Positions 727 to 9,954 of a stretch of DNA of 29,216 nt are shown one piece after another; the first letter of the stretch is position 1; every line of letters begins with the position of its first letter. The notes beneath the pieces are model-generated. The model saw nothing but the letters and a program-made list of their open reading frames with translations. It had not been told where the DNA came from and made no database searches. This DNA comes from a virus. The stretch spans positions 1 to 29,216 of the IMG/VR virus record IMGVR_UViG_3300049847_000276. One strand, 5' to 3'. Made by a program: the position numbers and the translations under genes.

Positions 727-1119
727 ATGTCGACTTCAAACAACGTTGAACTGTACACCGTGCAGGCTACGGCAGATTTGTCTGCACAGGCCTCACGGTT
801 CCGCGCGATCACGATCGCCGGTACGCTCGTGGCGGCTAACCCCGTCGCTGGTGCTTCCGGTCAAGCCATTGGCGTGCTGTGGTCGTCTACTCGCTCTGGC
901 GATCAGGCCACCTACGCATATCAGGGCATCGCCAAGTGCGTGGCTGGCGCTGCTGTGAGCACGCTGGGCTATCCCGTCATGACCGGGTCGTCCGGTTATT
1001 TCTTTGCTGCCAACTCAGGCTTCGCCCACATCGGACGTGCGCTGGAAACTGCGGCCTCTGGAGATTTGTTCCAGGCGCTCGTGGACTTCACGCAGCTGTC
1101 CTTGTGGACGGGCGTGTAA
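727..1119 (+). CDS. Capsid decoration / head-stabilising protein (DUF2190-like)
   Basis: This is a 130-residue, Ala/Gly/Ser-rich protein of beta character with no membrane segment. The repeated small residues and segments such as AIGVLWSS and YPVMTGSSGYF resemble the small capsid cement proteins encoded just before major capsid genes (DUF2190 type). These bind the outside of the capsid lattice and stabilise it. GGAG at 711-714 supports the ATG at 727. The gene sits between the scaffold-like gene and the major capsid gene, the standard place for a decoration protein. Family assignment is by pattern memory and the role by position; a minor head protein is the alternative. Confidence 0.6.
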   Translation: MSTSNNVELYTVQATADLSAQASRFRAITIAGTLVAANPVAGASGQAIGVLWSSTRSGDQATYAYQGIAKCVAGAAVSTLGYPVMTGSSGYFFAANSGFAHIGRALETAASGDLFQALVDFTQLSLWTGV

Positions 1120-1161: not shown

Positions 1162-2139
1162 ATGGGTTCAGCAACAGGCCGCGATTTACATGTCGACACT
1201 CTGTTGACGCAAATCGCCATCAACTACCGTCCGGGGGGCATGATCGCCGATCAGATCGCGCCCATCGTGTCGGTCGCAAAGGAAACGAACTCTTACCCGG
1301 TGTTCAACCGTGGTGAGGCGTTCGCGATTGAAAAGACCAATCGGTCGCGTGGCGCAGAAGCCAACCGCGTGACGCGTTCGGTCAGCAGCGCACAGTACAG
1401 CGTGAAGAACTACGCGCTGGCCTATGACCTGCCGATTGAGGACCGGGCGAACATGGACGCCACGTTCACGTTCGAGCTGGAAACGGGTGCGGTGCGGTAC
1501 CTGCAGGACAAGCTCATGCTCGACTGGGATCGTCGCATTCTGCTCGCCGCTGTGGCGGGCGTGGGCACGACGTTCCTGACGGGCAGCTCGTGGGCGGCCA
1601 GTGGTGCGAACGTGGGCGACCCCGTCAGCACCATCTGGAAGGCCATGGAGCAGGTGCAGCGTGTCACGGCGCAGAAGCCCAACAGCCTGATCTTTGGCTG
1701 GCAGGCGTACAACTTCGCTCGTCGCAACAGCAACTTCCGCAACTTCGTCATGGGTCTCAACAACGGCGGCAACAATGTCAGCCGTCAGGGCATCCAGGCG
1801 GCGTTCGAAGTTGACCGGTTGCTCGTCGCCGAGGGGTTCTACAACCCCGGCAACGAGGCGCAGACCGCGACCTTCAGCAACTACTTCCCGGCTGATGCTG
1901 TCATGGCGTACTACGCCCCGATGGCACCGTCGCTGGAAGCCCCGTCATTCATGTACTCGTTCCGCTGGACGGCTCCCGAACTGGGCACGCCGATGGGCGT
2001 GACGCGGCATGAGTTCGAGACGCGGTCGAAGGTCGAGGGCATCGAGCTGGCCTACTACCAGGACGAAAAGGTCACTGGTGGTGAGTACAGCGCGATCATC
2101 ACCGGCGTGGGTTCGGCGCAGGCCAACGGGCTGATCTAA
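1162..2139 (+). CDS. Major capsid protein
   Basis: This 325-residue protein forms the icosahedral shell. The N-terminal RDLHVDTLLTQIAINY block, a YPVFNRGE strand segment, the YDLPIEDRAN motif (about residues 88-97) and the long helix LETGAVRYLQDKLMLDWDRR match a family of phage major capsid proteins predicted to have the HK97 fold. The length is ordinary for a protein without a cleaved delta domain. A strong AGGAG precedes the ATG at 1162. An intrinsic terminator directly follows the stop, as expected for the gene that needs the highest expression in the late region. The tyrosine- and asparagine-rich C-terminal half probably forms the A domain. The general function is secure; the exact family name is not. 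Confidence 0.85.
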   Translation: MGSATGRDLHVDTLLTQIAINYRPGGMIADQIAPIVSVAKETNSYPVFNRGEAFAIEKTNRSRGAEANRVTRSVSSAQYSVKNYALAYDLPIEDRANMDATFTFELETGAVRYLQDKLMLDWDRRILLAAVAGVGTTFLTGSSWAASGANVGDPVSTIWKAMEQVQRVTAQKPNSLIFGWQAYNFARRNSNFRNFVMGLNNGGNNVSRQGIQAAFEVDRLLVAEGFYNPGNEAQTATFSNYFPADAVMAYYAPMAPSLEAPSFMYSFRWTAPELGTPMGVTRHEFETRSKVEGIELAYYQDEKVTGGEYSAIITGVGSAQANGLI

Positions 2140-2201: not shown

Positions 2202-2519
2202 ATGGGTATTTGGCATCACACGGACAAGGACGGCAAGCGCACAGCCGTGGAGCTGGACGCAGAGCAGTCGGCAGCGGACACCGCGCTGGTCGCAGAGTTT
2301 CAGGGGCTGGAAGGCGACGCCGCGCGTGGCGTGGATGTGGCCGCCAGCAAGGCACACGCCGAACAAGTGTCACGCTGCGTGAAAGCGGCTGACTCTCTGC
2401 CGTCGCTGCGCAAGGCGCATTGGCGCGGAGAGCTGGCGCGCATCGGCGCAATACCGGCTGATTCGGCTCCCAAGGCCCCTGCTGCGGCAGCGGCCCCGAC
2501 CACAATCGAACGCAAGTAA
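2202..2519 (+). CDS. Hypothetical protein, 105 aa
   Basis: I do not recognise this protein. It is 105 residues, hydrophilic and acidic to neutral. The N-terminal region (MGIWHHTDKDGK) could form a short beta hairpin, the middle is an Ala-rich probable helix, and the tail is an Ala/Pro-rich disordered segment. An ACAGGAGAAC ribosome binding site precedes the ATG at 2202. It is the first gene after the capsid terminator and is separated by 30 nt from the large glycosyltransferase fusion. Small genes here are often head-tail joining or minor head proteins, but nothing in the sequence proves that. Confidence 0.6.
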   Translation: MGIWHHTDKDGKRTAVELDAEQSAADTALVAEFQGLEGDAARGVDVAASKAHAEQVSRCVKAADSLPSLRKAHWRGELARIGAIPADSAPKAPAAAAAPTTIERK

Positions 2520-2549
2520 GCAGTCATCAACAATTCTGGAGGCAGTGAA

Positions 2550-5500
2550 GTGAATGAGACAACGCAAAAACGTGGGCTGACAATCAACATCCATGCATTC
2601 GGTATGCCGTTCAACGGCGACACGGTCAAGACCAAGTCGCTCGGCGGCAGCGAAAGCGCAGCGTACTACCTTGCCCGCGAACTCGCGGCGCGTGGCCACA
2701 ATGTGAATGTGTGGAACAACGAGAAGACTGACAGTCAGTGCGACAACGTGCGTTACATGCACGTGGGCGATGTGACCAAGGACTCGCCTCTGGGCAGTCG
2801 CTTCGAGCTGTACGCCCGCAACACGCCGCACGACGTGCTGATTGTGCAGCGTTGGCCTCATGCGTTTCATCGCCAGTTTGCCGCCAAGGTGTGCATCTGG
2901 CAGCTTCACGACCTTGCCCTCTACCGCTCGAGTGCGCAGATGATGGCGGGCGTATGGCAGTGCGACGCGATCACGTGCGTCAGCCAGTGGCACGCGGATC
3001 AGGTGCAGAAGGTCTGGAACATCAACCCAGCCGTGTTGCACGTGGTGCCCAATGGCGTTGACCCGGCGTTGTACGCGGACCAGATCGAAGGCATTGTGCC
3101 TGTGGCGCGCAGTGCCAGTATCGACAAGGTCGGCACGTTCACTGTGGGTGAGCAGAAAGTGGTTCAGCTCCCCGAGGACAAGTTCATCATGCTCTACCAG
3201 TCGCGCCCTGAGCGCGGGTTGGAGCACCTCGTGCGTCCGGGCGGCATCATGGATCGACTGCGCGACACGGCGACTGAGCTGGTGGTGTGCGGCTACGACA
3301 ATACCGTGCCGCAGATGGAGCAGTTCTACGGGCAGCTGGAGGAGTGGGGTCGCGCGCTGCCCAACGTTACATTCCTGGGCGCGTTGACCAAGCTCCAGCT
3401 TGCGTCGTTGCAACAGCACTGCGACCTGCTCTGCTACCCCACGGAATTCGAGGAAGTGTCCTGCATCACGGCGATGGAAGCCATGCATGCGGGCTTGCCG
3501 ATGCTTACGAGTGAGTGCGCCGCACTGACGGAGACGTGCAAAGGTTCCGGCACAACGCTGATCCCATTGAAAGATGGGAAGGCGGACGAGGACATGTTCG
3601 TTGCGCGCATCAACACTTACGCTAGTGGCGATCGCAGCGAGTGGCTGGAAGCCGCGAAGGACCTGCAATCTGTTGCAGCCCGCTCCCGCAAGTGGTCGGA
3701 CGCGGCTGACTGCCTTGAGGACGTGATCGACAAGTGCTTCGCCAAGCGCAACACCACGCCCGCAGTCCTGCGTCACGCCATCGAGCACAGCGACATAGAC
3801 TTTGCACGGTGGGTGTTGGATGCGCGCTCGCTGCCGACCGATAGCGCCGACTCTGTTACGGAGAACGCGCGTCAAGAAGTGCACCGCATGTACGCTTTCA
3901 CTGAGTCCGACGCTACCTACGAGGCGCACTACAAGAAGCACCAGACCGCGTACTACGACGAGCATGAGCAGAACGTGATCGGCGAGGACGTGACCAGCAG
4001 CACGCGGTATCGTGGGGTGTTGTCGTTGTTGGCGGAAGCGAAGAACGAACATCGTGGTCACATGCGCGTGCTGGATTACGGCTGCGCCCACGGGCACTAC
4101 AGCATTCCACTGGCCAAGACCTTTGCTGATTGCGACTTCGTAGGGGTGGACATCAGCTTCCGCGCCATCGAAGCCGCCAACAAGTGGAAGGACAAGGTCG
4201 GGGCGAAGAACGCCGAGTTCGTCACACTCGGTTCCGACTACTGGCAGCAGGGCCAGTACGAGGTGATTATTGCCGCTGAGGTGCTGGAGCATGTGCGCAG
4301 CCAGGACGAGTTCCTGCAGCAGATGCGCAGCTTGCTGGCACCCGGCGGCTGTTTGATCTTCACCACGCCCACGGGGCGCTGGGAGTGGCAGGGAACCGAG
4401 GCGTTCCGTACGGGGCGCGAGCATCTGCGGCTGTACGAGCGCGCCGATATCGAGGACCTGTGCGGCGCAGACCGGCATGAAATCATGCAGGCTCCCGCAT
4501 CGCATGACCGGGCAGGCGCGGCCTTGGGCAGCTTTGTGTGGGCGGTGTGGCCAACGGAAACGTTCGGCTCCCGCAAGATCGACTACGAGCGCAAGCTCCG
4601 TAACTACGCCCCACGGCAGACGGTTAGCGCATGTCTCATCGTTAAGGACGGAGAAAAGACGCTGCGCAAATGCGTGGAGTCATTCGTGGACTTTGTGGAT
4701 GAGGTCATCATCTGCATCGACCCCACGACCCGTGATCGCACGCTGAGCATTGCGAATGAACTGGCCAGCGATTTCCCTAATCGCCCGTTCATTATCGGCA
4801 CGGCTGAGCGCTCGGCGGTTCGTGACGGGTTCGATGAGGCACGGAACGAGAGCATCGCCAAGGCCAGCGGCGACTGGATTCTGTGGTGCGACGCGGACGA
4901 AGAGCTGCGCCATGCGGAACGCATCAGCATGTTCCTGCGTCCCAGCATGCACAACGGCTTCGGGTTCCCGCAGGTGCACTACAGCGCCGAACCCGATCAG
5001 GTGCTGACCACAGACTTTCCGTGCCGGCTGTTCCGCAACCGTCAGGGCATCAAGTTCTATGGCGTGGTGCACGAGCACCCGGAGACGGAGATCGGCAAGG
5101 CGGTGACGTGGTCGCTGGTACGGCACGACATGAAGTTCTTGCATGCCGGGTACGTGGACGAGCGCACGCGCCGGGCTCGGTACGAGCGCAACCTGCCACT
5201 GCTGATGCGTGACCGCAAAAAGTTCCCGAACCGAGATCTGAACAAGTTCCTCATGGTCCGTGACATTGCCCAAGGGCTGATGTTCGAGCAGCAGCAGACG
5301 GGCGGGCAGGTGATGCCATGGCAGCGCGATCAGGCGTTGGAAGGCATCCGGATCATGGAGGAGATGTGCGCACGACCGGACGCCCCGGTACGCATGATCG
5401 CTGACGCTATGCAGTACTACTCGCACTGCGTTGTGACGACGGGCGGCGGCTTTGATGCAGAGATCGACGTAAAGACCAAGAATGACATCGCCCCCGATCT

Positions 5501-5612
5501 GGCCGTGTCATTCAATATCAAGGGACGATTCCACTCACGCGACTTTTACACCAAGCTGTCGCACAAACTTCTACAGGAGAGCACTAAGCTATATGAAGAC
5601 CGATACCTCTGA
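2550..5612 (+). CDS. Three-domain GT4 glycosyltransferase / SAM methyltransferase / GT2 glycosyltransferase
   Basis: This 1020-residue protein joins three enzyme domains. Residues about 10-395 form a GT-B (GT4-like) glycosyltransferase: GGSESA at 32-37, PNGVD at 167-171, RPERGLEHL at 219-227 and an EX7E motif at E302/E310. Residues about 450-660 form a class I SAM methyltransferase: DYGCAHGHY at 509-517 (SAM-binding loop), VGVDIS at 531-536 and EVLEHV at 577-582. Residues about 690-880 form a GT2-like GT-A glycosyltransferase with CLIVKDGEKTL and a DAD metal-binding motif at 781-783. The remainder is a helical tail. A GTG at 2550 sits 7 nt after GGAGG; the next gene overlaps by 20 nt. All key motifs look intact, so it should be active. 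The acceptor is unknown: virion protein, host envelope glycan and DNA base are all possible. Confidence 0.85.
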   Translation: MNETTQKRGLTINIHAFGMPFNGDTVKTKSLGGSESAAYYLARELAARGHNVNVWNNEKTDSQCDNVRYMHVGDVTKDSPLGSRFELYARNTPHDVLIVQRWPHAFHRQFAAKVCIWQLHDLALYRSSAQMMAGVWQCDAITCVSQWHADQVQKVWNINPAVLHVVPNGVDPALYADQIEGIVPVARSASIDKVGTFTVGEQKVVQLPEDKFIMLYQSRPERGLEHLVRPGGIMDRLRDTATELVVCGYDNTVPQMEQFYGQLEEWGRALPNVTFLGALTKLQLASLQQHCDLLCYPTEFEEVSCITAMEAMHAGLPMLTSECAALTETCKGSGTTLIPLKDGKADEDMFVARINTYASGDRSEWLEAAKDLQSVAARSRKWSDAADCLEDVIDKCFAKRNTTPAVLRHAIEHSDIDFARWVLDARSLPTDSADSVTENARQEVHRMYAFTESDATYEAHYKKHQTAYYDEHEQNVIGEDVTSSTRYRGVLSLLAEAKNEHRGHMRVLDYGCAHGHYSIPLAKTFADCDFVGVDISFRAIEAANKWKDKVGAKNAEFVTLGSDYWQQGQYEVIIAAEVLEHVRSQDEFLQQMRSLLAPGGCLIFTTPTGRWEWQGTEAFRTGREHLRLYERADIEDLCGADRHEIMQAPASHDRAGAALGSFVWAVWPTETFGSRKIDYERKLRNYAPRQTVSACLIVKDGEKTLRKCVESFVDFVDEVIICIDPTTRDRTLSIANELASDFPNRPFIIGTAERSAVRDGFDEARNESIAKASGDWILWCDADEELRHAERISMFLRPSMHNGFGFPQVHYSAEPDQVLTTDFPCRLFRNRQGIKFYGVVHEHPETEIGKAVTWSLVRHDMKFLHAGYVDERTRRARYERNLPLLMRDRKKFPNRDLNKFLMVRDIAQGLMFEQQQTGGQVMPWQRDQALEGIRIMEEMCARPDAPVRMIADAMQYYSHCVVTTGGGFDAEIDVKTKNDIAPDLAVSFNIKGRFHSRDFYTKLSHKLLQESTKLYEDRYL

Positions 5613-6129
5613 GACCCTGATCGCTGACCAGCTTCAACCGTTGGGCACGATCCGTGTCCGGACCTTCCGCGCCGATGGTTCGGGCGGTTGGCGGCAGTTG
5701 ACCGAGAAGGAACTGAAGAACGTTGTCACCAGTGCGGGGCTGAACCGCATTGCCAACCGCGCCGTGAACGCAACGGGCACGTCGCCGCTGTACATCATCG
5801 GCGTCGGCTCATCCACGGCCACGCACTCGCTCGCGAGCGTGCAGGCGGGACTGGGCGAGGTGAAGCGCAAGACCAGCAACTTCACGGGCACCAGCGCGCA
5901 GTCGCGCGAGTGGATTTTCCTTCAGTGCACGATTGGCGGCGCAGCGGACTCGGTCACGAGCGTGGCGCTGGATACCGTGTTCATGGCGGACTTCCCGAAC
6001 TCGCACGCCAGCACGGGCATCATCGGCGCGGCGACCAACGGACTCGGCGTGACGCTGGCAGGTAGCGACCTGCTGGACCTCACCTACCGCATCCGCGTGG
6101 GATCGCACGACGTGTCACACACGACTTGA
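5593..6129 (+). CDS. Phage structural-type protein, 178 aa
   Basis: The 178-residue product resembles a widespread phage structural domain: a TSAGLNRIANRA start motif, YIIGVGSST, a GLGEVKRKTSNF segment, then alternating beta strands ending in LLDLTYRIRVG. Proteins of this type are found beside capsid or fibre genes and are taken to be virion-surface or fibre-associated. The ATG at 5593 has AGGAG at 5575-5579 and overlaps the preceding gene by 20 nt, so translation is probably coupled. An in-frame start at 5482 was rejected because its extra residues are a shadow of the other gene. Being coupled to the glycosyltransferase fusion makes it one candidate substrate, which is inference. Confidence 0.55.
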   Translation: MKTDTSETLIADQLQPLGTIRVRTFRADGSGGWRQLTEKELKNVVTSAGLNRIANRAVNATGTSPLYIIGVGSSTATHSLASVQAGLGEVKRKTSNFTGTSAQSREWIFLQCTIGGAADSVTSVALDTVFMADFPNSHASTGIIGAATNGLGVTLAGSDLLDLTYRIRVGSHDVSHTT

Positions 6130-6138
6130 GGAGGACTG

Positions 6139-6402
6139 ATGGGCTTCAGCAATTCACTTGTGTTCCGGGTCCTCTGCGCCATTGACGTGTTTGTCAGTAG
6201 CGTAGTGTGGCCGGGGCAGTGCATCACCATCTCCGCTCGTGCCGGGATGGAGATGCGCGACAAGCAGAACTCCATGTGGTGGGCGCGGTGGCTGAGCCGT
6301 GCATTGAATGTACTGGGCAAAGACCACTGCCAGAAAGCCATCGCGGGTGACTTGGAACGGGCGCGCGCAGCGATAGCGCGGCTGATCGGGGTGCTGCGAT
6401 GA
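6139..6402 (+). CDS. Small conserved-looking phage protein, 87 aa
   Basis: This 87-residue protein has a hydrophobic N-terminal helix (LVFRVLCAIDVFVSSVVW), a short ITISARAGMEMR motif, and a basic helical half with GKDHCQKAI followed by an Ala/Arg-rich helix. I recall similar small proteins in other proteobacterial phages, without a function. GAGGA lies just before the ATG at 6139, and its stop overlaps the radical SAM start (ATGA). Two cysteines besides C13 (C28, C64) are notable. Because short proteins coupled to radical SAM/SPASM enzymes are often their substrates, a precursor role was considered. However, there is no typical leader/core layout. Confidence 0.6.
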   Translation: MGFSNSLVFRVLCAIDVFVSSVVWPGQCITISARAGMEMRDKQNSMWWARWLSRALNVLGKDHCQKAIAGDLERARAAIARLIGVLR

Positions 6403-7109
6403 TCCGCCTCACCAACATTCACCAGATCGAGATTACGTCGCGGTGCAATCTGCGATGCAAATACTGCGCGCACCCGACGATGACGCGGGTCAAGCAGGAT
6501 ATGCCGCGCGGCATCTTCGAGGCGGCGTTGGAGTGGGCCGTGTACTTCAAGCATCAAGGCACGCAGTCCTCACTGAACCTCGCAGGCATCGGTGAATCCA
6601 CCATGCACCCGGAGTTCGTGGACTTTGTAGCGCTAGCGCGCGAGCGACTGGGTGAGACGCAAGACTTGGTGCTAGCTACCAATGGGTTGCTGATGACCGA
6701 TGCACTGGCCATGGCGCTCAAGCCCTACCGCCCACGCGTGTACGTGTCGCTACATCGTCCGGAGCGTGCCGGGCCAGCCGTGGAGGCGCTCAAGCGTGCC
6801 GGGCTGATAGCGGGTGTGAGCGTAGACGCCGCCGTGAGCGCAACGGACTGGGCAGGGCAGATCAAGTGGCACGTGAGTGCGCAGCGCAGCATGTGTCCGT
6901 GGGTGTTGGGTGGCTGGGCCATGGTGCTGAGCGACGGGCGCTTGACGCGCTGCTCATTCGACGCCACGGGCATTGGCGTATTCGGCAACGTGACAGACGA
7001 CCTGTCATTGCTTCAGACCAGCCCTTACTCGCTGTGCGAGAAGTGCCATCAGGATGTTGGATTCGTAAAGGTTAACGAGGAGGTTCATCGTGAAGAAGTG
7101 GCTGCTTAG
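6399..7109 (+). CDS. Radical SAM enzyme with SPASM-like C-terminus
   Basis: The 236-residue protein has the canonical CX3CX2C cluster motif at C16, C20 and C23 (CNLRCKYC), which binds the 4Fe-4S cluster and SAM. A GIGES motif follows at 63-67, in the place of the usual GGE SAM-contact segment, with ATNG at 93-96. Four further cysteines (C166, C185, C213, C216), with the CEKC pair at the end, form a SPASM/twitch-like auxiliary cluster region. Such enzymes typically modify peptides or carbohydrates by radical chemistry. It is short for the family, suggesting a minimal barrel. It overlaps the 87-residue gene by 4 nt and the exported Ig/Fn3 gene by 20 nt. The enzyme class is clear; substrate and reaction are unknown. 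Confidence 0.85.
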   Translation: MIRLTNIHQIEITSRCNLRCKYCAHPTMTRVKQDMPRGIFEAALEWAVYFKHQGTQSSLNLAGIGESTMHPEFVDFVALARERLGETQDLVLATNGLLMTDALAMALKPYRPRVYVSLHRPERAGPAVEALKRAGLIAGVSVDAAVSATDWAGQIKWHVSAQRSMCPWVLGGWAMVLSDGRLTRCSFDATGIGVFGNVTDDLSLLQTSPYSLCEKCHQDVGFVKVNEEVHREEVAA

Positions 7110-7890
7110 TTTGTTGCTACCGTTATCGGCAATTGCCGCCCCTACCGTGACACTGACACCAAGCGTCACGACTGGCGCTGTGCCTTTGAGCCTCACCCTC
7201 ACATGGTCGAGCACTGGTGCAACGGGCTGTATCGCTTCGGGCGGCTGGTCTGGCACCAAAGCGGTCAGCGGATCTGAAGTCGTGACTAAATCCACGACTG
7301 GAGCGACTGCTTACACGCTGACATGCACCGAGCCGGGCGATACGACTGCGGCCCTCAGTTGGACGCCACCGATCCAAAATACTGATGGGACACCGTTGAC
7401 GAATCTTCAGGACTATCGCGTCTATAGCCGCGTCGGAACCGCCCCGTTTGCTGTTGTTCAAACCCTGGCTGCACCGCGTAGTGCATTTACATTCACGGGT
7501 TTAGCGCCGGGCGCGTGGGAGTTCTCGCTCACCGCGCGCAATACGGCAGGCACGGAATCGGCACAGAGCTCGGTTGCCAGCAAGACGCTGACCGCGCCGA
7601 GTGCTACCACCGTGACGGCCACCGTGACCGGCACGGCGATCGTTGTGCCGAATCCGCCGAGTAACGTCACGATAGCCGTGGTGGTGGGAGCGAATGTGGC
7701 TCCGGCCTACAAGATTCTCGCCAATGGCGCACGTTCCGACGTGCTCGCTGGGTTTGTCCCTGCCGGGAAGGCTTGTGACGGCCCGGTGGTGTTCACGTAC
7801 CGTGGGTCCAAGTTTAAACGAGTAGCGCCAGCCGACGTGCAGTGGTGGTCAACTACGTCAACCTCAGCAGTGGCAGCGCCATGCGGCTGA
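7090..7890 (+). CDS. Exported Ig-like/Fn3 domain protein
   Basis: The 266-residue protein begins with a signal peptide (MKKWLLSLLLPLSAIAA, probable cleavage after residue 17) and is therefore predicted to leave the cytoplasm. Residues about 18-90 resemble a bacterial Ig-like repeat with the GCIASGGWSGTKAVSGS motif. Residues about 92-165 form an Fn3-like domain with LSWTPP, DGTPLTNL and YRVYSRVG motifs. The Ser/Thr/Val-rich rest ends in a domain with two cysteines. A GTG start at 7090 follows GAGGAGG and overlaps the radical SAM gene by 20 nt. A signal peptide is unexpected in a virion gene block. It could be a cell-surface moron protein, an exclusion factor or a secreted substrate of the neighbouring enzymes. 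Confidence 0.7.
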   Translation: MKKWLLSLLLPLSAIAAPTVTLTPSVTTGAVPLSLTLTWSSTGATGCIASGGWSGTKAVSGSEVVTKSTTGATAYTLTCTEPGDTTAALSWTPPIQNTDGTPLTNLQDYRVYSRVGTAPFAVVQTLAAPRSAFTFTGLAPGAWEFSLTARNTAGTESAQSSVASKTLTAPSATTVTATVTGTAIVVPNPPSNVTIAVVVGANVAPAYKILANGARSDVLAGFVPAGKACDGPVVFTYRGSKFKRVAPADVQWWSTTSTSAVAAPCG

Positions 7891-8099
7891 CATTGGACGA
7901 GCACTTGCGTAAAGCCGCTCAAGAGTATCTCGCTGAGGTACTTGAGGAGTGTGGCGGGCGCGTTGTCGAGGCTGCGAAGATCGCCGGGCGCAATCGCACC
8001 GCGTTGTACCAAATATTGCGCGGGGAAAATATTCGCGGCGTACCAAAAGGGCGCTACGGCAATTGTGGGAACGCCGCGTGGCAGGAGCTTCGTCACTAA
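7881..8099 (+). CDS. Fis-type helix-turn-helix protein
   Basis: The 72-residue protein consists mostly of a Fis/NtrC-type DNA-binding fold. Helices span about residues 5-22 (DEHLRKAAQEYLAEVLEE), then GGRVVEAAKIAGRNRTALYQ supplies the helix-turn-helix, where AAKIAGRNRTALY is the recognition unit. The tail is short and basic with one Cys. The ATG at 7881 overlaps the previous stop by 10 nt and has no convincing ribosome binding site, so coupling is likely; a GTG at 7842 would add 13 residues. Fis-type domains bind DNA as dimers. Late structural operons rarely encode one, so it may tune late transcription or host genes. The fold is fairly clear; the target is unknown. Confidence 0.65.
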   Translation: MRLTLDEHLRKAAQEYLAEVLEECGGRVVEAAKIAGRNRTALYQILRGENIRGVPKGRYGNCGNAAWQELRH

Positions 8100-8100
8100 G

Positions 8101-9954
8101 ATGGCGCAGTGGAAGCGACAGCGAAGATACGGTGCGGCGCGCCTTAAGACGGTGAGCAGCGGCAACACCTTTGACATCACGCAACTGCCCGTTGCCGCGC
8201 AGGGTCTCGGCGACTGGAATGCGCTCGCAGCCGCAGGCGGCACCTCGCTCGCGGTTAACTCAACATGGACTTGCAGCACCGGCGTGCCGATTCGTCGGTT
8301 GACAAACGCATCGACGCCGGTCGGCAACACGTCCTGCGGCATTCTTTACACCACTGGCGGGCGTGACGTGTCGCGCCGCTATGGGGCCGGCAACGACACC
8401 GTGCATGTGATTTACGAGGCTTTCGGGTCTGGTGGTCGCATGATGAACTACCAGCGTGGTGTGGGCGTCCTGTCGGATGTCTCCTACACGCTGTCGTCAA
8501 CGTCTCGGCTCGCCTACTGTTTCTCAAAGAAGGCATCTGAGCCGCACATCCTGTATTTCGCTACCGATGGCTCCGGGGTCGGGGCGGGAACGGGGGCGAA
8601 GCTGCATCGTTATGATGTCAATGCCGGGGCTTACGCGGCCAATTCCATCTTCACCGGCGCAACTGCCAGCATCGACATCTATGGGCAGTACGTCTATTGG
8701 TGCCAGCAGACTTGGGATGGCACTTGCATGTCGTTGCACACCACCGATGCAGGTGGCGACACCTATGCTGTGCAGTACATCGAACTGGACACCGGCACGA
8801 TCTACACCTACGCGGGTGTTGGTGACGCCTTTGGCACATCGTACTCCATCACAGCAGCGACACAGGCGAACCCGTGCCAACTCACGCTCAGCGGTAGTCT
8901 CACAGGGCTAAACGTCGGTGATTACCTGACGATCAGCGGCGTGGGTGGAATGACAGCACTGAACGGACAGTACGTCCGTGTTCTCTCCAAAGCTGGCGCA
9001 AACATCACTATCGGCGGTACTGCGAACACTTGGGCGAACGTCAATTCGACCGGGTACGGCGCGTACACATCAGGCGGAAGTTGCGTCAAGACCAACAATC
9101 TCAACGACATGAGAATTGGTGCTGATAGCGGGTTGAAATTCTGCGCGCTGGCGGGCAATGCCCGTGACAAAGCGTTCTGGTTCCCGGTCACCAACCACGT
9201 CACGGCATGGACACAACAGTGGGAAGGTTATGGGCACTCAGATGGCCTGCTCGATGCGTACATAGCGGAAGCGGCTGACGGAACAATTTTCTTTCAGCGC
9301 ATCCTACCGGGCACTGATCCTGGTGAAGGGGCGGCGTGGAACGGCTCCAAGACCAATGTGGCCACCAACCAAAGCGGAGTTCCTGTACTCACCGGTGACT
9401 ACCATCCCGGCAAAGGCTGGGTGCAGCCGTACACGGGCACCGATCAGTATTTCGTGCTGGAGTCTGAAGACAGTCTAGACAACCTGAGTCTAACGACGTG
9501 GACGCTGCACAGCGGCAGCATCTACAAGTGCACAGCCACATTTACAAGTTACATGGGCGGCGCTGATTCGATTTCTGGTGTCTACAAAGTTTCCGGGTCG
9601 AACTTCATCGGACACATGGTAAAAGCGGCCAGTCTTGGCGCAATGGTGTCGGGCACTTACTTCTATGACCCGACCGGCAACGTGATATACGTTTGGCATC
9701 CGAGTGGCGACCCAACAGGCTTAGTGCGTCCCGTTGCCTACGGGCGCATCGGGCTGGCTTTCGGCGCTATCAGGATGAGCAACGACAATGAGCGGCTGTA
9801 CTGCTACACCTACCAGCAGCCTGATACTTACGTTTATGAAAAGACCCCGTTCCACTGCCAGAGTCCTGACGGCGACCTGCTATTTTTCACATCCTCGCTA
9901 GGCGTTAACGCCGGGCGAACCGACGTGTTCTGTGCGGAGTTACCCGTCATATGA
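8101..9954 (+). CDS. Large beta-rich virion protein with FCCH-like domain
   Basis: This 617-residue protein has a basic N-terminus (MAQWKRQRRYG) and then long stretches of beta-strand sequence. Segments such as LHRYDVNAG and IYGQYVYWCQQTW recall beta-propeller or solenoid fibres. Residues about 247-300 (ITAATQ, LNVGDYLTISGVGGM, LNGQYVRVL) match the small FCCH-like beta domain seen in many phage structural proteins. The C-terminal half is Gly/Tyr-rich. AGGAG at 8083-8087 supports the ATG at 8101. A longer frame from 7942 only mirrors the HTH gene. It probably makes a head or tail fibre or a carbohydrate-contacting surface protein, with no enzyme motif visible. The role is inferred from composition and neighbours. 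Confidence 0.6.
   Translation: MAQWKRQRRYGAARLKTVSSGNTFDITQLPVAAQGLGDWNALAAAGGTSLAVNSTWTCSTGVPIRRLTNASTPVGNTSCGILYTTGGRDVSRRYGAGNDTVHVIYEAFGSGGRMMNYQRGVGVLSDVSYTLSSTSRLAYCFSKKASEPHILYFATDGSGVGAGTGAKLHRYDVNAGAYAANSIFTGATASIDIYGQYVYWCQQTWDGTCMSLHTTDAGGDTYAVQYIELDTGTIYTYAGVGDAFGTSYSITAATQANPCQLTLSGSLTGLNVGDYLTISGVGGMTALNGQYVRVLSKAGANITIGGTANTWANVNSTGYGAYTSGGSCVKTNNLNDMRIGADSGLKFCALAGNARDKAFWFPVTNHVTAWTQQWEGYGHSDGLLDAYIAEAADGTIFFQRILPGTDPGEGAAWNGSKTNVATNQSGVPVLTGDYHPGKGWVQPYTGTDQYFVLESEDSLDNLSLTTWTLHSGSIYKCTATFTSYMGGADSISGVYKVSGSNFIGHMVKAASLGAMVSGTYFYDPTGNVIYVWHPSGDPTGLVRPVAYGRIGLAFGAIRMSNDNERLYCYTYQQPDTYVYEKTPFHCQSPDGDLLFFTSSLGVNAGRTDVFCAELPVI

What the first reader, a model, noticed from the sequence alone, without database searches (positions are those of the whole stretch)
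2550..5612. GT4, SAM methyltransferase and GT2 domains fused in one 1020-residue phage protein beside the capsid gene
Motifs of all three enzymes are intact in one frame: EX7E (302/310), DYGCAHGHY (509-517) and DAD (781-783). Phages do encode glycosyltransferases, but a GT-B/methyltransferase/GT-A fusion in the capsid region suggests a self-contained enzyme that adds, caps and extends a sugar. Possible acceptors are capsid or fibre proteins, host glycans or DNA. Which one is inference.
Basis: partly seen in the sequence, partly recalled or inferred. Interest (0 to 1): 0.65.

Follow-up and report, generated by a model that had tools for sequence, protein, structure and literature searches.

The report
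Capsid-linked three-in-one phage sugar enzyme
An uncultured phage and its many relatives carry, right behind their capsid gene, a single protein that joins two sugar-transferring enzymes and one methyl-transferring enzyme; it most likely builds a methylated sugar decoration on the virus particle, something known from algal giant viruses and, with separate genes, from a few mycobacterium phages.

Summary
The 1020-residue ORF at 2550-5612 is real: GT4, class-I SAM methyltransferase and GT2 domains in one frame, all three active sites intact. It is no assembly artefact. Relatives with the same GT4-MT-GT2 order (27-64% identity) occur in about 100 viral contigs, with catalytic residues kept in nearly all of 78 non-redundant members and dN/dS well below 1. 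A separate search with the capsid protein found the fusion downstream in 68 of 70 contigs long enough to show it; the other two end among intervening genes. In a distant lineage with a different capsid family the fusion again sits directly behind the capsid gene. AlphaFold gives a confident model (pLDDT 88). The GT2 module's closest solved relatives are protein/peptide glycosyltransferases: GmaR (flagellin), SunS and ThuS (bacteriocins). Best explanation: a soluble three-activity enzyme that glycosylates a virion protein, most likely the capsid: GT2 places the first sugar, GT4 extends it, MT methylates it. Acceptor, sugars and order are inferred. Nearest working analogues: PBCV-1 A064R, WsaE, and the unfused capsid-side genes of mycobacteriophages. 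A radical-SAM gene often accompanies it. New variant of a known kind.

The parts
2550..5612 (+). GT4-methyltransferase-GT2 fusion protein, 1020 aa
2577..3749 (+). GT4 module (residues 10-400), GT-B fold, E302/E310
4002..4469 (+). class-I SAM methyltransferase module (residues 485-640), DYGCAHGHY 509-517
4617..5609 (+). GT2 module with helical C-terminal part (residues 690-1020), SunS/GmaR type, DxD 781-783
2538..2542 (+). Shine-Dalgarno-like GGAGG before the GTG start
1162..2139 (+). major capsid protein, favoured acceptor
   Evidence: phrog_1005 2.8e-57; fixed neighbour of the fusion
727..1119 (+). head scaffolding protein
   Evidence: phrog_673 1.6e-9
2202..2519 (+). small protein of unknown function between capsid gene and fusion; found at a different place in some relatives
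5593..6129 (+). fibre-like protein, alternative acceptor; likely start overlaps the fusion stop by 20 nt
   Evidence: phrog_4176 1.1e-6; overlap conserved
6399..7109 (+). radical-SAM protein with four C-terminal cysteines (twitch/SPASM-like), frequent companion
   Evidence: Pfam Radical_SAM 8.8e-13

Best explanation
The gene encodes a soluble, cytoplasmic, three-activity enzyme that glycosylates a virion protein, most likely the major capsid protein encoded just upstream. Proposed steps: the C-terminal GT2 module (SunS/GmaR type) puts the first sugar on a protein side chain; the N-terminal GT4 module adds a second sugar; the central methyltransferase methylates the glycan, perhaps ending its growth. 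Host nucleotide sugars and SAM would be the donors. Shown: three modules with intact active sites, purifying selection on each, a confident fold, and a fixed place behind the capsid gene. Inferred: acceptor, sugars, order of steps, and that methylation caps the chain.
For: Three domains above cut-off, all present in 21 of 22 diverse members. Catalytic residues kept in nearly all of 78 members; low dN/dS in each domain. Capsid-seeded search: fusion downstream in 68 of 70 contigs with room. Same slot behind a different capsid family in L031 and its three relatives. GT2 module closest to GmaR, SunS, ThuS. No membrane-like segment. Precedents: A064R, WsaE, Corndog genes and mycobacteriophage capsid glycans.
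Against: No activity, glycan or virion has been measured. Nearest neighbours by capsid and by fusion agree in only 22 of 72 loci, so the pair is not strictly co-inherited. The GT2 relatives fix neither donor nor acceptor, and the methyltransferase gives no substrate signal. The conserved overlap with the fibre-like gene could point to that protein instead.
Confidence: 0.68

Rival explanations
1. The enzyme decorates the fibre-like protein encoded immediately downstream (5593-6129), or another tail protein, rather than the capsid.
For: The fibre-like gene is the next gene in 37 of 68 loci and its start overlaps the fusion stop by exactly 20 nt in 35 of 41 fibre-bearing loci, which suggests translational coupling.
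Against: In 17 of 68 loci the next gene is a head-tail connector, with no fibre-like gene there; the capsid gene is the constant neighbour.
Confidence: 0.17
2. The enzyme adds sugars and methyl groups to phage DNA, protecting it from restriction, as other phage glycosyltransferases do.
For: Phage glycosyltransferases that hypermodify DNA are known (Pyle et al. 2024, cited in PMC12619734).
Against: A thymidylate-synthase-family gene (the family of dCMP hydroxymethylases) was found in only 1 of 15 records, though these are incomplete. The GT2 module groups with protein/peptide glycosyltransferases and the gene lies among late head genes.
Confidence: 0.05
3. The enzyme changes a host surface glycan such as O-antigen, for superinfection exclusion.
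For: The GT4 module resembles PimB', PimA, WaaG and other lipid- or LPS-directed enzymes; WsaE, a methyl-capping analogue, works on a lipid-linked glycan.
Against: No membrane-like segment; fixed place among late head genes in two capsid lineages; no flippase-like neighbour seen among the window genes scanned.
Confidence: 0.08

Closest known systems
PBCV-1 A064R (chlorovirus GT-GT-methyltransferase for the capsid glycan)
   Same: One viral protein with two glycosyltransferase domains and one methyltransferase domain, each verified biochemically, acting on the glycan of the major capsid protein.
   Different: 638 residues, order GT-GT-MT, acts on an N-glycan outer part; virus of algae. Here the order is GT4-MT-GT2 and the GT2 module is SunS/GmaR-like.
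WsaE of Geobacillus stearothermophilus (S-layer glycan)
   Same: Soluble three-activity enzyme with one methyltransferase and two glycosyltransferase domains; methylation is taken to end chain growth.
   Different: Order MT-GT-GT, polymer built on a lipid carrier and then exported; bacterial.
Mycobacteriophage virion glycosylation (Corndog gp35-gp38; Che8, Rita capsid glycans)
   Same: Methyltransferase and glycosyltransferase genes beside head genes; glycans reported on capsid and tail tube proteins.
   Different: Separate genes, located between portal and protease genes in Corndog; no full-length relative of the fusion was found among isolate phages.
GmaR, SunS and ThuS protein/peptide glycosyltransferases
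   Same: The GT2 module is their clear homologue (1e-28 to 1e-19; SunS fold match over 299 residues).
   Different: They carry a single glycosyltransferase domain; GmaR also has TPR and anti-repressor regions. None carries GT4 or methyltransferase.

Membership tests
GT4 glycosyltransferases | GT-B fold with GT4 domain pair | tested here: met
   Pfam Glyco_transf_4 2.5e-15 and Glycos_transf_1 8.8e-10; GT-B structures Z 18-20 over residues 7-400
GT4 glycosyltransferases | EX7E motif | tested here: met
   E302 and E310 in the window; first position Glu in 60 and Asp in 18 of 78 relatives, second Glu in 77
GT4 glycosyltransferases | retaining sugar transfer | not testable with these tools
   needs enzyme assay
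Class-I SAM-dependent methyltransferases | SAM-binding motif I (D-x-G-x-x-x-G) and acidic motif II | tested here: met
   D509, G511, G515 and D534 kept in 77-78 of 78; Pfam Methyltransf_23 1.7e-22
Class-I SAM-dependent methyltransferases | sugar as substrate | not testable with these tools
   profile search gives mixed substrates
SunS/GmaR-type GT2 glycosyltransferases | GT-A domain with DxD and homology over the whole catalytic domain | tested here: met
   profile match over positions 6-204 with DADE aligned; D781 in 78 and D783 in 77 of 78
SunS/GmaR-type GT2 glycosyltransferases | transfer of sugar to a protein or peptide side chain | not testable with these tools
   needs assay with acceptor protein
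A064R-like viral capsid glycan synthases | domain order GT-GT-MT | tested here: not met
   order here is GT4-MT-GT2: an analogue, not a member
WsaE | N-terminal methyltransferase followed by two GT domains | tested here: not met
   methyltransferase lies between the two GT modules
Phage virion glycosylation systems | glycosyltransferase genes within the head gene module | tested here: met
   68 of 70 capsid-seeded contigs with room
Phage virion glycosylation systems | glycan on a virion protein | not testable with these tools
   no virion is available

The most novel reading that the evidence does not exclude
A large uncultivated phage clade makes capsid glycosylation a core function through a single three-activity enzyme that starts, extends and methylates a glycan directly on the capsid protein, often with radical-SAM enzymes adding a further modification; the same enzyme also occupies the same slot behind a different capsid family.
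Probability: 0.4. Interest if true: 0.8.

Novelty: new variant of a known kind. Interest (0 to 1): 0.62.

Why it matters
In the papers found here, glycans on tailed-phage virions are documented for mycobacteriophages. A fused enzyme that stays behind the capsid gene across a whole clade suggests that capsid glycans are a core trait of some phages rather than an ornament. It would be a compact one-protein route to a methylated glycan on protein, and a clean test system: one gene, one likely acceptor. The frequent radical-SAM gene beside the capsid is itself unexplained.

Tried and rejected
Assembly artefact or chance fusion: rejected by many full-length relatives. Degraded active sites: rejected. 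Cellular origin with the same fusion: one genome-contig scan found only partial GT4-like matches in Patulibacter and an actinobacterial MAG; the patterns were narrow, so absence is not shown. Host: not found; capsid and tail hits among isolates are distant and mixed. The first AlphaFold run with 8 sequences was poor (pLDDT 60.6) and was replaced by the 22-sequence run. Freeman et al. 2023 is not held, so it is cited only through papers that quote it. GPCR entries were ignored as chimaeras: at least one is named as fused to PGS, and the matches fall in the GT-B region. A literature search for a multi-domain phage enzyme of this kind gave nothing. Capsid-versus-tail co-evolution did not separate the acceptors: fusion distances follow tail-protein distances about as well.

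Full report
Observation. The ORF at 2550-5612 (+) encodes 1020 residues without a stop, preceded by GGAGG at 2538-2542. Pfam finds a GT4 pair (32-173; 206-342), a class-I methyltransferase (489-638) and a GT2 domain (693-798), all above cut-off. The window is a 29,216-base IMG/VR virus record whose genes read as a tailed-phage head and tail module: scaffold, major head protein, fusion, fibre-like genes, connectors, tape measure, distal tail.

The fusion is a conserved gene. A first search gave seven contigs at 55-63% identity; profile searches gave 30 loci and then 114 matching stretches, of which 80 were kept. Of 22 diverse members scanned, all carry methyltransferase and GT2 and 21 carry GT4; the exception, L030, has an ORF that begins near its contig end. 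Among 78 members below 95% identity, R219 is invariant, E310 is kept in 77, D509 in 77, G511 and G515 in all, D781 in all and D783 in 77; E302 is Glu in 60 and Asp in 18. Pairwise dN/dS is about 0.02-0.32 in each domain wherever synonymous change could be measured; one close pair has no amino-acid change at all in the methyltransferase. So all three activities appear to be under selection.

It belongs to the capsid. To avoid the bias of searching with the fusion, I searched with a capsid alignment. Of 80 contigs, 10 end too soon; of the other 70, 68 have the fusion downstream and 2 (L097, L098) end after two radical-SAM genes. This covers capsid proteins at least about 40% identical to the window's, the best 80 of 303, and some contigs are near duplicates. 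In 74 loci the gap from capsid to fusion is 13-2144 nt, mostly under 500. In several loci (for example L021, L024, L056, L074) the fusion lies between the capsid and head-tail connector genes with no fibre-like gene. Fusion distances follow capsid distances (Mantel r 0.69, none of 2000 permutations as high), though nearest neighbours agree in only 22 of 72. Cultured phages with remote capsid homologues show no gene of this size directly behind the capsid gene in the two stretches read (Tedan, RHph_Y60), and no isolate record encodes the full fusion.

A second capsid lineage. L031 and three contigs about 90% identical to it (one of them partial) carry a fusion; L031's is 27% identical to the window's over nearly the full length. 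Its upstream gene is a different major head protein family (phrog_1328, 1.5e-60), not detected by the window capsid profile and related to the capsid of Sporosarcina phage Lietuvens. In Lietuvens small genes follow the capsid gene and no such fusion is annotated there. So the gene occupies the same slot behind two capsid families that sequence profiles do not connect.

Structure and kinship. With 22 sequences AlphaFold gives mean pLDDT 88 and pTM 0.87. The GT4 module matches GT-B enzymes such as a Rickettsia glycosyltransferase, PimB', WaaG and MshA. The top structural match by Z is SunS (Z 22.4, rmsd 3.8, 299 residues, reaching residue 1008), then ThuS, so part of the helical C-terminal region is probably shared. 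A profile of the GT2 module finds GmaR (1.3e-28), SunS (4.1e-24) and ThuS (1.2e-19), then a drop to 2e-7. GmaR is a flagellin glycosyltransferase (PMC3150276, with established knowledge for the acceptor); SunS and ThuS glycosylate bacteriocin peptides (entry titles; established knowledge). The methyltransferase profile gives no decisive substrate. There is no membrane-like segment (maximum 19-residue hydropathy 1.13).

Mechanism. Most likely GT2 places the first sugar on a virion protein, GT4 extends it, and the methyltransferase modifies it, all in the cytoplasm around head assembly. The capsid protein is the favoured acceptor because it is the constant neighbour. The fibre-like protein is the main alternative: its start overlaps the fusion's stop by exactly 20 nt in 35 of 41 fibre-bearing relatives, but another gene follows the fusion in many loci. 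DNA and host glycans are less likely: a thymidylate-synthase-family gene was seen in 1 of 15 incomplete records, and no lipid-linked glycan machinery was seen among the window genes scanned.

The radical-SAM companion. Window 6399-7109 encodes a radical-SAM protein with CxxxCxxC and four conserved C-terminal cysteines. It occurs in 0, 1 or 2 copies in 12, 7 and 7 of 26 loci with wide flanks, between capsid and fusion, downstream, or upstream of the scaffold. Distant solved relatives include ChlB and BtrN. It may modify the sugar or the protein; this is open.

Known analogues. PBCV-1 A064R is a GT-GT-MT protein for the capsid glycan, verified domain by domain. WsaE is an MT-GT-GT enzyme whose methylation is taken to end the S-layer glycan. 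Corndog has O-methyltransferase and glycosyltransferase genes beside its head genes, and mycobacteriophage capsids and tail tubes carry glycans. Many other uncharacterised GT and methyltransferase multi-domain proteins exist in viral structure libraries. The present protein differs from the characterised ones in domain order, in its GT2 type, or in being one gene fixed behind the capsid. I therefore file it as a new variant of virion glycosylation, by analogy and location, not as a member of A064R or WsaE.

Limits. Contigs are incomplete, the host is unknown, and no activity has been measured.

Noticed in passing
window 6399-7109; L003-L006, L012, L013, L017-L020, L036, L037, L050, L072, L077, L079 and others: Radical-SAM gene with twitch/SPASM-like cysteines beside the capsid genes, in one or two copies and at varying positions; no match in isolate phages.
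   Followed up: partly
window 5593-5612 and relatives: The fibre-like gene starts exactly 20 nt before the end of the fusion in 35 of 41 loci that have it.
   Followed up: partly
L031:6583-7728; L166, L167, L168: A different capsid family (phrog_1328) stands before a 27% identical fusion.
   Followed up: yes
window 2112-2139 and relatives: Capsid C-termini are short conserved tails, often Ser/Thr-rich such as AVNSST or NVTSSS.
   Followed up: no
L079-L085, L087, L088 upstream of the capsid gene: Two tandem scaffold-like ORFs instead of one.
   Followed up: no
L065:5955-6902: Capsid gene appears split in two ORFs, perhaps a sequencing error or an insertion.
   Followed up: no
window 7090-7890 and 7942-9954: A fibronectin-III protein and a 670-residue protein with a weak tail-protein match lie between the fibre-like gene and the connectors; many relatives lack this stretch.
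   Followed up: no
L155:2604-5252: A relative in which the methyltransferase module aligns over only 43%, possibly a natural loss or an assembly gap.
   Followed up: no
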